From contig CP017966.2 of assembly GCA_002813105.2 (NCBI GenBank), forward strand, positions 1,003,437 through 1,067,436: 64,000 nt of DNA, in the 5' to 3' direction. The notes under the pieces were generated by a model. The model was not told where the DNA came from, searched no databases, and worked only from the letters and a program-made list of their open reading frames with translations. This DNA comes from Methanosarcinales archaeon Met12. GTDB taxonomy: Archaea > Halobacteriota > UBA148 > JAJOKI01. A program made the position numbers and the translations under genes. This document shows positions 61,305-64,000 of the stretch, piece by piece; positions within the stretch are counted from its first letter, which is position 1; every line of letters begins with the position of its first letter.

Positions 61305-61356
61305 TCCCAAAATGGAAGGATATACGACATTAATGTCGGATATACCGAAGTTATAT
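61298..61356 (+). repeat. Att-like site downstream of the recombinase, cassette array start
   Basis: Begins with the 25-bp repeat (61298-61322), then the palindrome CGACAT-TA-ATGTCG, direct repeats of GGATATAC, and ends GAAGTTATAT. The first cassette starts at G61350/T61351. ATATAAT at the left could act as R'' to GTTATAT. It could be the attI-like primary site or an attC belonging to a recombinase cassette. Confidence 0.6.
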
Positions 61357-61380
61357 GAAATGGCGTTGAAGGAGTAAAAT

Positions 61381-61731
61381 ATGGAAGAAAAAAGTCCAAC
61401 GCAAAAAGCATGGGAAACAATGAGAAATAAGGGTCCAGGGAAAAAATCTGCATATACAAAAAAGCGTAAGGAAGGTGCTAGAAAAGCAGCTGTAAAGGTC
61501 AAAAATAAACAGTGGGAAATTGAAAAAGTGGAATATTTAAAGGCATTAAAAGAAAAGGCGATGCCAGATACATGTGTTGTTTGTGGCGATAGCAGACTAT
61601 TTGTTCTTCAGGTTCATCATGCAGACCCTGAGAAAAAAATTGAAGTAATGCTGTGTGCAAATTGCCACGATACAGTTAGACGAGGTACTTTCGGGGATTT
61701 GAGGGAAGCGCACAAGGGAGACGATGAATGA
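61381..61731 (+). CDS. HNH-like zinc-binding protein (cassette 1)
   Basis: 116 residues. A basic helical N-terminus (KKSAYTKKRKEGARKAAVKVKNKQW) is followed by CVVCGDSRLFVLQVHHADPEKK and LCANCHDTVRRG: two CxxC pairs around a His-His as in HNH nucleases. The final catalytic His/Asn is less certain. Could be an endonuclease or a nucleic-acid-binding zinc protein. GAAGGAG lies before the ATG. Confidence 0.75.
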   Translation: MEEKSPTQKAWETMRNKGPGKKSAYTKKRKEGARKAAVKVKNKQWEIEKVEYLKALKEKAMPDTCVVCGDSRLFVLQVHHADPEKKIEVMLCANCHDTVRRGTFGDLREAHKGDDE

Positions 61732-61752
61732 ATTATATCGATACGCCACTTC

Positions 61753-61838
61753 ATATCACACAGCATAAAAGGTTCGCCCTTCGGGCTCACCCAAATTTTT
61801 GTTTCGCAAAAACTTCTTTTATGCTGAAACCGTTATAT
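61753..61838 (+). repeat. attC-like site of cassette 1
   Basis: 86 bp. Left box ATATCAC (one mismatch to ATATAAC), right box GTTATAT at 61832-61838. An 11-bp perfect stem CAGCATAAAAG/CTTTTATGCTG encloses two smaller hairpins, CGCCC-TTC-GGGC and a TTTTTG-TTTCG-CAAAAA stem. Overall shape fits an attC recognised as a folded single strand. Confidence 0.7.
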
Positions 61839-61916
61839 GAAATCGTGGACTTCTGGCGCAAAAATGATAAATATAAAAAGTATAAATCTATAACTAAAAC
61901 TAAAGGAGGTAAAACT

Positions 61917-62501
61917 ATGAGAAAGACAATTGAAAATCTGACAAGGGCTTTTATCGGTGAAAGCCAGGCAAGGAATAGATATACTTTCTATTCCAAAATT
62001 GCCAAAAAAGAAGGGTTTGAACAGATCGCTGAGATTTTTCTCATCACCGCAGAAAACGAGAAAGAACATGCAAGCTGGTTATTTAAGTTAATTAACGAGT
62101 TGAAAAAGAAGAGCAAGGAAAACCTTGATGAAATAAAGGTTGAGGCAGTAGCCCCAACAATACTTGGCACAACAGCTGAGAATTTGAAAGCAGCAATTGC
62201 TGGCGAAAATTATGAGTACACAAAAATGTATCCGGAATTTGCTGATGTTGCTGAAAAAGAAGGATTTCCTGAAATTGCCAAAAGGCTAAGAGCGATTGCG
62301 GTAGCTGAACAACATCATGAGGAGAGATACAAGAAACTTTTGAAAGAAGTTGAAGCAGGAACAGTGTTCAAAAAAGAGAAAGAAGTGTGGTGGGTTTGTC
62401 GTGAATGTGGATATGTTTATTTTGGAACAATGCCGCCGGAAAGATGTCCATCTTGCGACCACGGAAGAAGCTTTTATCAAATTAAATGTGAAGAATATTA
62501 A
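61917..62501 (+). CDS. rbr: Rubrerythrin (cassette 2)
   Basis: 194 residues from ATG 61917, which has AAAGGAGGT before it. The diiron domain has ESQARNRYTFY, ENEKEHASWLF, GENYEYTKMYPEFADVAEKEG and EQHHEERY; the C-terminal rubredoxin-like domain has CRECGYVYFG and CPSCDHG. It reduces hydrogen peroxide in anaerobes. AATATAAAAAG near 61870 could be a cassette-borne promoter, unusual for integron cassettes. Paired with superoxide dismutase. Confidence 0.95.
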   Translation: MRKTIENLTRAFIGESQARNRYTFYSKIAKKEGFEQIAEIFLITAENEKEHASWLFKLINELKKKSKENLDEIKVEAVAPTILGTTAENLKAAIAGENYEYTKMYPEFADVAEKEGFPEIAKRLRAIAVAEQHHEERYKKLLKEVEAGTVFKKEKEVWWVCRECGYVYFGTMPPERCPSCDHGRSFYQIKCEEY

Positions 62502-62521
62502 AATTAAGGAAGTAACAATAT

Positions 62522-63109
62522 ATGACAATTCAAAAAGAAATCTACAAATACGAGGATTTTAATCATCTTCTTGGTACTAAAGGATTTAGCGATACGTTGC
62601 TAAAGAACCATTTCGCTCTGTATCAGGGTTATGTCAATAATATAAATAAAATTATTGAATTGCTTGAAAAGACTGATAAAACATCACCTGAATTTGCAGA
62701 GATGAAGCGCAGGCTCGGCTGGGAATTTAATGGCATGCGACTTCATGAATTATATTTTGGAAATATGAAAAGAGGAGGCGCCGCAATTGATAAAAATCAT
62801 GCGCTTTTCAAAAAAAATACAGTAGACTTCGGCTCATTTGAAGCATGGGAAAAAGACTTTAAGGCAATAGGTGCAATGCGCGGCATTGGCTGGGTGATAT
62901 TATATCATGACCCTGATTCAGACAGGCTTTTCAATGTTTGGATAAATGAACATGATGTGGGACATATTTCAGGTGCGAAACCTCTGCTGGTTATGGACAT
63001 ATTTGAGCACGCCTATATGGTTGATTACGGCCTGAAAAAGGCGGATTATATTACTGCATTCTTTAATGCAATTGACTGGGGAGTAGTAGAAAAAAGGTTT
63101 ATAAAATAA
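62522..63109 (+). CDS. sod: Fe/Mn superoxide dismutase (cassette 2)
   Basis: 195 residues. Family landmarks: TLLKNHFALYQGYV (His ligand), MRLHELYFGNM (His ligand), and MDIFEHAYMVDYGL (Asp and His ligands). The C-terminal part is normal but some positions are divergent, so metal preference is open. It begins 20 bp after rubrerythrin, so the cassette can detoxify both superoxide and peroxide. Confidence 0.93.
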   Translation: MTIQKEIYKYEDFNHLLGTKGFSDTLLKNHFALYQGYVNNINKIIELLEKTDKTSPEFAEMKRRLGWEFNGMRLHELYFGNMKRGGAAIDKNHALFKKNTVDFGSFEAWEKDFKAIGAMRGIGWVILYHDPDSDRLFNVWINEHDVGHISGAKPLLVMDIFEHAYMVDYGLKKADYITAFFNAIDWGVVEKRFIK

Positions 63110-63241
63110 TAATCAATAGCATAATTACGAAAAATACTGTTGATGTTTCTATGGTTTATAGAGAGCATAAATTTATGACGCCCTTCGTCCACGACTCTAC
63201 CCCCGCCCTTTCTGTAAAAGGGCGGGGTTGCCCTTCGGGTC

Positions 63242-63340
63242 ATATAACAGCGGATAAAGGGGAAATCCCTGTCTGCCGACAGGCAGGAAAGATTTCCCTA
63301 AATTGCCTTCGGCAACTTCTTTTAGCCTTGAACGTTAGGC
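63242..63340 (+). repeat. attC-like site of cassette 2
   Basis: 99 bp. R'' ATATAAC 63242-63248, R' GTTAGGC 63334-63340. Inside: GGGAAATC ... GATTTCCC, CCTGTC-TGCC-GACAGG, TTGCC-TTC-GGCAA, and an imperfect outer stem. Just upstream (63200-63240) are CCCCGCCCTTT ... AAAGGGCGGGG and CCCTTCGGG hairpins outside the boxes. Confidence 0.74.
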
Positions 63341-63368
63341 GAAATGCTCACTATGGGACGTAAAAAAT

Positions 63369-63974
63369 ATGTCAGCTTTTGAAATCTTAATTAACAACTG
63401 GGAATTGGTAGTAGCTCTTACATTTGCATTTTTGGTTGGAGCTATTGCTGGGCTAATGTTTTTGGCTATTAATAAAGATAAAGCGCTGAAATTTGGTGTA
63501 AAGGTTGATCAACTCAGGAAGCCGGTCGGAAAGACCCTCTTTAAAATCTTGAGAAAACCCCAAGGTGTTTTTAAGGCTATTCTATTTATTTTCGCTGTAA
63601 ACTTAATAGGTGGTGCCGGTATGTACGCTACCTTAGGAGGAGTCTTGATCGTTCCCCTGCTTCTCTGGTTGGCTTTGGTAGGGCTTCTTGTAGTTTTAGT
63701 TGTGGTAAAAGAGCCACAAAGACTGCCTGTTGCTATTCGAGTAGTTCCCTTTGAAATAGGCGCATTCATAGTTGCGGGCGTTGGAGGAATGAACATAGGG
63801 ATAAATTTTATTTTTGGTGGAGATGTAGGATTGGCAATAAGGGAGTGGATAACCCTGTTTTACACTTTGGTTATTCCTCTACAGTTCATTGGGGCATTTT
63901 TTGAAGGGATTATGGCTCATCGGGTCTACATAGTGCAGCAAAAACCATTACCAGAATGGTTATCAGAAGATTAA
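63369..63974 (+). CDS. Multi-pass membrane protein, SpoIIM-like (cassette 3)
   Basis: 201 residues with five membrane helices. VVPFEIGAFIVAGVGGMNIGINF and LQFIGAFFEGIMAHRVYIV recall SpoIIM/DUF95 membrane proteins. Function unknown; no catalytic motif. ATG follows the cassette border by 29 bp. After the stop, GATTAAC and CCCCTTCG near the window end may start its attC. Confidence 0.7.
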   Translation: MSAFEILINNWELVVALTFAFLVGAIAGLMFLAINKDKALKFGVKVDQLRKPVGKTLFKILRKPQGVFKAILFIFAVNLIGGAGMYATLGGVLIVPLLLWLALVGLLVVLVVVKEPQRLPVAIRVVPFEIGAFIVAGVGGMNIGINFIFGGDVGLAIREWITLFYTLVIPLQFIGAFFEGIMAHRVYIVQQKPLPEWLSED

Positions 63975-64000
63975 CAAAATGAGTGCCCCTTCGTTCGCAC

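What the first reader, a model, noticed from the sequence alone, without database searches (positions are those of the whole stretch)
61351..64000. Integron-like gene cassette array in an archaeal chromosome
Three same-strand cassettes follow a tyrosine recombinase. Each junction has a GTT core box and each complete cassette ends in a folding site of 86-99 bp with paired outer boxes. R'' of cassette 2 (ATATAAC, 63242) is the exact complement of its own left border (GTTATAT, 61832), the hallmark of insertion of a circular cassette between G and TT. The two sites share the motif AACTTCTTTTA. Integrons are mainly bacterial; archaeal cases have been reported from metagenomes, but with IntI. The genes before the array are plainly archaeal.
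Basis: partly seen in the sequence, partly recalled or inferred. Interest (0 to 1): 0.93.

Follow-up and report, generated by a model that had tools for sequence, protein, structure and literature searches.

The report
Integron whose integrase lacks its helix
A small archaeal chromosome carries a string of gene cassettes, each ending in a hairpin-forming site, beside a broken copy of a DNA-joining enzyme whose family lacks the helix thought necessary for capturing cassettes yet likely inserted them.

Summary
A covariance model trained only on other genomes finds both attC sites of the finding (E 3e-14, 5e-8) and, at the other end of this one-contig 1.07-Mb archaeal genome, the attC of the third cassette; the array runs from proS to a proteasome gene. 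The recombinase is the news. Its family is sister to IntI in a tree but lacks about 41 residues, the I2 region. In archaea and many bacterial phyla these genes are followed by an attI-like dyad and GTT core (42 of 59; other gene ends 74 of 739) and by attC arrays (41 of 47 loci with 1 kb downstream; 3 of 70 upstream). First cassettes carry an R'' exactly complementary to their own border in 24 of 37 loci (foreign borders 26 of 968). Their attCs mostly lack the L-box extra bases of canonical attCs. None of 60 relatives searched has IntI over cut-off. Best reading: a second, I2-less integron lineage. The local integrase is frameshifted and the array probably decaying; no activity is shown.

The parts
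58583..60001 (+). proS (prolyl-tRNA synthetase), archaeal gene flanking the array; named from its translation, no family search was run on it
59995..60081 (+). 3' tail of an older copy of the integrase gene (relic)
   Evidence: tblastn of P0001, P0002, P0005; direct repeat D1
60136..60190 (+). relic of an attI-like site (first dyad module) after the relic gene
   Evidence: repeat D2; same layout as the attI-like regions of other loci
60217..61304 (+). integrase of the I2-less clade, frameshifted: N part 60217-60651, C part from 60654; about 16 nt short against P0005
   Evidence: tblastn; Pfam SAM-like N and Phage_integrase; read-through protein 79% identical to P0001
61272..61352 (+). attI-like site: dyad module 1 (about 61277-61304), dyad module 2 (about 61318-61346), core GTT at 61350
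   Evidence: sequence; conserved after homologous genes
61351..61832 (+). cassette 1 (482 bp)
   Evidence: borders and attC
61381..61731 (+). cassette 1 gene: HNH-endonuclease-like protein, 116 aa
   Evidence: PHROGs HNH E 2.9e-9; Pfam HNH weak, below cut-off
61752..61843 (+). attC of cassette 1, through the next core and GAAAT
   Evidence: R1 73.5 bits
61833..63334 (+). cassette 2 (1502 bp), two genes
   Evidence: borders and attC
61917..62501 (+). rubrerythrin
   Evidence: NCBIfam NF045767, 251.8 bits, cut-off 200
62522..63109 (+). Fe/Mn superoxide dismutase family protein
   Evidence: Pfam PF02777 E 1.2e-25
63241..63345 (+). attC of cassette 2, through the next core and GAAAT
   Evidence: R1 45.9 bits
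63335..64000 (+). cassette 3, first 666 nt; continues at the contig start (L003:1-82), about 748 nt if no base is missing at the join
63369..63974 (+). cassette 3 gene: likely membrane protein, 201 aa (judged from its sequence), no Pfam family over cut-off
42108..43475 (+). single cassette away from the array, with a 218-aa ORF (42142-42798) and a uracil-DNA-glycosylase-like ORF (42792-43403)
   Evidence: left border GTTAAGCG at 42107 is the exact complement of R'' CGCTTAAC; R1; PF03167 E 4.8e-7
43397..43486 (+). attC of the single cassette
   Evidence: R1 32.8 bits

Best explanation
This is a gene-cassette array next to an attI-like site and a frameshifted tyrosine recombinase of a clade that is sister to IntI but lacks its I2 region, and that recombinase family likely inserted the cassettes. 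Shown by sequence: the cassettes, their attC hairpins, the border/R'' complementarity, the conserved attI-like dyads plus GTT after homologous genes in many phyla, the missing I2 region, and, in most of the family's attCs, L boxes that pair without the extra bases of canonical attCs. Inferred: a circular cassette offers one strand of attC as a hairpin; the recombinase, bound to the dyads of attI, exchanges a strand between G and TT of the core; new cassettes therefore enter next to the gene. Also inferred: without I2 and extrahelical bases, strand choice and avoidance of a second cut rest on the lopsided spacers (mostly 1 nt between R'' and L'', 5 nt between L' and R') and perhaps on the extra N-terminal HARP-like domain. 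In this genome the gene has lost about 16 nt and the array's attCs carry mismatches, so the array is probably decaying.
For: attC: R1 hits in the window and at the contig start; L-box helix 95.1% paired with double-sided changes in 11 of 11 pairs. Position: 80 family loci gave 106 R1 hits, 90 on the gene's strand downstream, 11 on the other strand downstream, 5 upstream; 41 of 47 loci with at least 1 kb downstream have one, against 3 of 70 with at least 1 kb upstream. Cassette hallmark: R'' is the exact complement of its own border in 24 of 37 loci, against 26 of 968 pairings with foreign borders. attI-like core plus dyad: 42 of 59 gene ends against 74 of 739 other ORF ends. I2 absent: patch-III lysine to HxxRH is 66 residues in 73 of 73 family rows measured, 107-108 in 9 of 10 IntI, 68-74 in 9 of 9 XerC/D; TIGR02249 aligns to the family in two pieces around profile positions 180-235 in the rows listed. 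Tree: family 99/94, IntI 100/100, family plus IntI against Xer 100/99. Genomes: the family gene is in 6 of 60 relatives, all 6 among the 21 with attC, 0 of the 39 without (p 0.001); in 120 genomes of the WOR-3 phylum 12 of 13 with the gene have attC, against 36 of 107 without it (p 6e-5). Canonical IntI over cut-off in 0 of 60 relatives. R1 hits 0 times in 270 kb around canonical IntI genes.
Against: No recombination is shown. The local gene is broken. 15 of the 21 attC-bearing relatives have no family gene detected, one of them a single-contig genome (G054, 86% complete), and 36 of 107 WOR-3-phylum genomes without the gene have attC, so cassettes also sit apart from it. 6 of 47 loci have no downstream hit, and 33 of 80 have under 1 kb after the gene. 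R1 was trained on sites from many of the same 80 loci, so searches are partly circular; the window, the relatives other than G052 and 10 of the 13 gene-bearing WOR-3-phylum genomes gave no training site that I know of. by itself warns that nothing rang anywhere; its positive controls are. 6 of 49 family genomes also hold a canonical IntI. The no-bulge count falls from 20 to 15 of 24 when gaps are made cheap in the alignment. Of the window's own four sites only 61752 has a clean 11-bp bulge-free L box; 63241 pairs poorly, L003:4 has two extra bases in L'', and 43397 fits poorly.
Confidence: 0.8

Rival explanations
1. The cassettes are ordinary integron cassettes placed by a canonical IntI acting in trans, and the neighbouring recombinase is an unrelated Xer-like gene.
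For: Arrays without IntI are common: most archaeal integrons reported were CALINs (PMC9668308); 15 of 21 attC-bearing relatives lack the family gene; 6 of 49 family genomes do hold a canonical IntI.
Against: 0 of 60 relatives have IntI over cut-off, while the same model finds it in 66 of 198 genomes elsewhere. The attI-like site sits directly behind this gene in many phyla. These attCs differ in geometry from canonical ones.
Confidence: 0.12
2. The recombinase is a cellular XerA-type dimer resolvase and the dyads are dif-like sites into which cassettes happen to fall.
For: P0001 passes NCBI's XerA model (252.6 bits, cut-off 220); the best solved match of the model is XerA.
Against: In the tree the family groups with IntI and not with XerA. 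It is patchy (6 of 60 relatives), and six relatives carry plain XerA-like hits that start at profile position 79 or later, without the N domain. Cassettes start at the GTT core.
Confidence: 0.06
3. The array is an assembly or binning artefact joining bacterial DNA to an archaeal contig.
For: The contig ends lie inside cassette 3; reads were not available.
Against: 16 model hits at E<=0.01 are spread over the whole contig, 21 of 60 relatives have such sites, the two contig ends match as halves of one cassette, contamination 0.02%.
Confidence: 0.02

Closest known systems
Chromosomal integrons with IntI (bacterial; archaeal cases in Ghaly et al. 2022, PMC9668308)
   Same: GTTRRRY-type cores, cassettes with attC hairpins, R'' complementary to the cassette's own left border, attI beside the integrase gene
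   Different: integrase lacks the I2 region that the archaeal IntIs of that paper are said to have; L boxes mostly without extrahelical bases; spacers mostly 1 and 5 nt; N-terminal HARP-like extension
CALIN (cluster of attC sites lacking an integrase)
   Same: at least two attC sites near each other with no IntI by the I2 criterion
   Different: a sister-clade recombinase and an attI-like site sit beside it, so the 'lacking' is probably a matter of the search profile (IntegronFinder's integrase model itself was not run here)
XerA / XerC / XerD recombinases
   Same: catalytic fold and spacing of motifs (66 against 68-74 residues in XerC/D)
   Different: separate clade, extra N-terminal domain, linked to cassette arrays
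CTX-phi type integration by Xer on a hairpin (passages of PMC4792948 and PMC7790495)
   Same: hairpin without extrahelical bases used by an I2-less recombinase, as those passages describe it
   Different: here the system has its own recombinase, its own attI-like site and stored gene cassettes

Membership tests
Integron (strict, IntI-based) | Integrase with the IntI additional (I2) domain | tested here: not met
   66 residues between motifs against 107-108 in 9 of 10 IntI; two-piece alignment; 0 of 60 relatives with IntI over cut-off; P0001 235.2 bits, cut-off 265
Integron (strict, IntI-based) | Tandem cassettes with folding attC sites | tested here: met
Integron (strict, IntI-based) | R'' complementary to the cassette's own left border | tested here: met
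   window: cassette 2 exact over 8 nt, cassettes 1 and 3 with one mismatch each; other loci 24 of 37 exact against 26 of 968
Integron (strict, IntI-based) | attI beside the integrase gene | tested here: met
   at sequence level only: 42 of 59 against 74 of 739
Integron (strict, IntI-based) | Extrahelical base(s) in the attC L box | tested here: not met
   family loci: 60 of 77 sites without a bulge against 1 of 17 near canonical IntI; 20 of 24 (15 of 24 with cheap gaps) against 0 of 10. Window's own four sites mixed
Integron (strict, IntI-based) | attI x attC recombination activity | not testable with these tools
   needs an assay
CALIN | At least two attCs less than 4 kb apart, no IntI | tested here: met
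   61752 and 63241 are 1.4 kb apart, a third lies across the contig join; no IntI over cut-off in the own genome
XerA (NCBIfam NF040815) | Score over the curated cut-off | tested here: met
   P0001 252.6 against 220; the window's C half alone 185.2
XerA (NCBIfam NF040815) | Groups with chromosomal XerA in a tree | tested here: not met
   6 XerA rows (98/86) on the Xer side; family groups with IntI, 100/99

The most novel reading that the evidence does not exclude
A second integron lineage, spread over Archaea and many bacterial phyla, captures hairpin cassettes without I2 and without extrahelical bases. It is the surviving intermediate of integron evolution: cassette capture came first, and I2 with extrahelical bases was added later in the IntI branch. 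Many archaeal and bacterial 'CALINs' are simply this system, unseen because searches demand the I2 domain.
Probability: 0.55. Interest if true: 0.94.

Novelty: new variant of a known kind. Interest (0 to 1): 0.88.

Why it matters
[quoted passage not shown] A passage of PMC4792948 calls extrahelical bases and I2 a good example of coevolution and the acquisition of I2 a chicken-egg paradox. A sister clade in which both are mostly missing together, yet attI-like sites and cassette arrays are present, makes that paradox directly testable. It also offers an integrase for many arrays recorded as lacking one (most archaeal integrons, PMC9668308) and in groups where complete integrons are said to be very rare, such as Firmicutes (PMC9024848). 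The near-complete, single-contig genome places such an array between archaeal core genes, with only the read check missing.

Tried and rejected
Rfam has no match in the array at gathering thresholds; an own covariance model was needed. DNA folding of single sites was uninformative for sites b and c, and I had cut site d short. The first border test (34 of 38 own borders, own contig included, but a mean hit rate of 0.42 with foreign borders) was too loose; one search replaces it. For some searches I corrected attI cores by eye: 15 automatic picks were dropped and 4 of these loci re-entered; the own contig was left out. Searches used 78 of the 80 loci (L007 and L011 end at the gene). In one search at least five of the 42 positives (L026, L044, L045, L052, L068) point to another GTT than the one seen by eye. 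Minus-strand hits are mostly the same near-palindromic sites read backwards. For the tree rows covering 220 or fewer profile positions and near-copies were left out, and of the family rows over 300 aa the first 36 were used. VIA-align spans model residues 76-343 only, so the fold of the N-terminal domain is untested. HARP is a weak Pfam match in 7 of 18 members (best E 4.7e-4), and DUF2683 an equally weak one in 8 of 18. The AlphaFold model is middling (pLDDT 74, pTM 0.45), its matches superpose poorly as a whole (rmsd 11 to 18 A for XerA and IntI4), and it is not used for the mechanism. The archaeal IntIs of PMC9668308 were not fetched, so their relation to this clade is open. Literature: the searches listed no paper whose title or shown abstract describes an I2-less integron integrase; that library lacks bioRxiv and most subscription journals.
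Full report
Observation. Cores GTT lie at 61350, 61832 and 63334, with three same-strand cassettes behind a tyrosine recombinase. Cassette 1 (482 bp) encodes an HNH-like protein. Cassette 2 (1502 bp) encodes rubrerythrin and a superoxide dismutase. Cassette 3 encodes a likely membrane protein.

The other end. The window is the 3' end of a one-contig genome of 1,067,436 bp, 97.24% complete and 0.02% contaminated. The contig start (L003) opens with the attC of cassette 3: its R'' CGCCTAAT matches cassette 3's left border GTTAGGCG with one mismatch. 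The next genes are a proteasome subunit, a KH-CPSF nuclease and a thermosome (named from their translations). The two contig ends thus read as halves of one cassette, and the array lies between archaeal core genes.

attC model. I built a covariance model (R1) from 56 attC sites of other loci (alignment A2). The L-box helix pairs in 95.1% of cells, and all 11 of its pairs show double-sided changes; the whole structure's covariation score is 0.546 against 0.175 when shuffled. R1 finds 61752-61843, 63241-63345 and 43397-43486 in the window and nothing else at E<=1, and 4-93 at the contig start. In the whole genome it finds 16 sites at E<=0.01, 15 of them on one strand.

The recombinase. The local gene is split by a frameshift: against P0005 the reading breaks between 60651 and 60654 with about 16 nt missing. 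A relic tail of an older copy lies at 59995-60081, at the end of proS, and an attI-like relic follows that tail. A scan of one genome per species confirmed 491 stretches and kept the best 80 as loci, from archaea (Methanophagales, Altarchaeum, Nanohalarchaeota and others) and bacteria (WOR-3, Nitrospirae, Spirochaetes, Atribacterota, Clostridia and others).

attI-like site. After the stop codon of many of these genes lie one or two dyads (for example CGACATTAATGTCG) and then a GTT core. A fixed test (core plus dyad of 4 or more) finds this in 42 of 59 loci with at least 200 nt after the stop, against 74 of 739 other ORF ends (p 2e-25); at least five of the 42 point to another GTT than the one seen by eye.

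Arrays. R1 gives 106 hits at E<=0.01 in the 80 loci: 90 on the gene's strand downstream, 11 on the other strand downstream (six in L061, four in L078, one in L055 that duplicates a plus-strand site), 5 upstream. Of 47 loci with at least 1 kb downstream 41 have a hit; of 70 with at least 1 kb upstream 3 do. Since R1 was trained on many of these loci, the more independent cases are the window, the relatives other than G052 and 10 of the 13 gene-bearing WOR-3-phylum genomes. The cassette model predicts that R'' of the first cassette is the exact complement of its left border: met in 24 of 37 loci, against 26 of 968 pairings with foreign borders.

Not IntI. TIGR02249 aligns to these proteins in two pieces (about 2-180 and 235-315) in the rows listed, while the intact canonical IntIs align without a break. 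The lysine-to-HxxRH distance is 66 in all 73 family rows measured, 107-108 in 9 of 10 IntIs (the tenth 170) and 68-74 in 9 XerC/D; the other IntI and XerC/D rows and all six XerA rows did not match the motif pattern. The A1 profile matches IntI4 (2a3v) in two pieces with 59 chain residues but 17 profile positions between them, and XerA (4a8e) in one piece. A maximum-likelihood tree of 75 rows (36 family, 22 IntI, 6 XerA, 11 XerC/D) makes each group one side of a branch and joins the family to IntI against the Xer rows at 100/99. The root is drawn at the midpoint and not tested.

attC geometry. With one detector, family loci give 77 sites of which 60 have no bulge in the L boxes and 36 have spacers of 1 and 5 nt; canonical IntI neighbourhoods give 17 sites of which 1 has no bulge (both counts include chance sites; p 3e-8). 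With sites chosen by border complementarity, 20 of 24 have no bulge (15 of 24 when gaps are made cheap), against 0 of 10 canonical sites picked by eye under either setting. R1 gives no hit in 270 kb around canonical IntIs. So the enzyme lacks I2 and its sites mostly lack what I2 is said to dock on (passages of PMC7790495 and PMC4792948). The window's own sites are mixed: 61752 is clean, 63241 pairs poorly, L003:4 has two extra bases, 43397 fits poorly. That suits a decaying array but is no support by itself. Over the own genome 11 of 15 sites checked (of 16) align without a gap, several of them over few pairs.

Genome level. In 60 relatives 21 have attC at E<=0.001 and 6 have the family gene (G000, G052, G082, G083, G091, G105; best hit over 240 bits), all 6 among the 21 (p 0.001). 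Six further relatives have only XerA-like hits under 160 bits. None of the 60 has IntI over cut-off; that call warns that nothing rang anywhere, but the same model finds IntI in 66 of 198 genomes of another phylum and in 6 of 49 family genomes. In 120 genomes of the WOR-3 phylum 13 have the gene and 12 of them attC; 36 of the 107 others have attC too (p 6e-5). Where gene and sites share a contig in these lists (G007, G021, G027, G365, G378, G082, G083), the nearest listed sites lie downstream on the same strand; in other genomes the listed sites are on other contigs, and the lists are capped. Cassettes without a nearby gene are therefore common and count against a strict link.

Known or new. 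Archaeal integrons are known: PMC9668308 (outline, section 5 parts 1-2 and section 14 read) reports 75 MAGs, six IntIs, the additional domain in archaeal IntIs, and CALINs as most arrays. NCBI's XerA model even carries the product name 'site-specific tyrosine recombinase/integron integrase'. PMC8618304 and PMC9024848 were seen in passages only. I found no paper in the listings of the held library that describes an I2-less integron integrase clade, its attI dyads or bulge-free attCs. I file it as a new variant of the integron.

Noticed in passing
own genome, 16 R1 hits; G082: 15 of 16 scattered attC sites in the 1.07-Mb contig lie on one strand (p 0.0005), and the 12 hits of G082 are all on +. 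A two-armed chromosome would be expected to flip.
   Followed up: partly
L137 about 1575 nt and L145 about 594 nt before their attC: Single cassettes start behind attI-like dyads (for example GCGAACTTGAGTTCAGATATAAAGA|GTT) with no recombinase remnant found in the stretches searched by tblastn: secondary or orphaned attI-like sites. The L145 border has one mismatch.
   Followed up: partly
window 41462-42021: DUF4258 protein plus MazE-like antitoxin (toxin-antitoxin-like pair) directly before the single cassette at 42108; possibly an older cassette.
   Followed up: no
window 61833-63334: A two-gene cassette with rubrerythrin and superoxide dismutase, which would form an oxygen-defence module; the organism's physiology was not examined.
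   Followed up: no
window 59995-60190: Relic int tail plus relic attI-like module directly behind proS: looks like a tandem duplication of the int-attI unit.
   Followed up: partly
P0001 residues 1-75 and homologs: N-terminal HARP-like domain on the recombinase; the fold of this domain alone was not searched.
   Followed up: no
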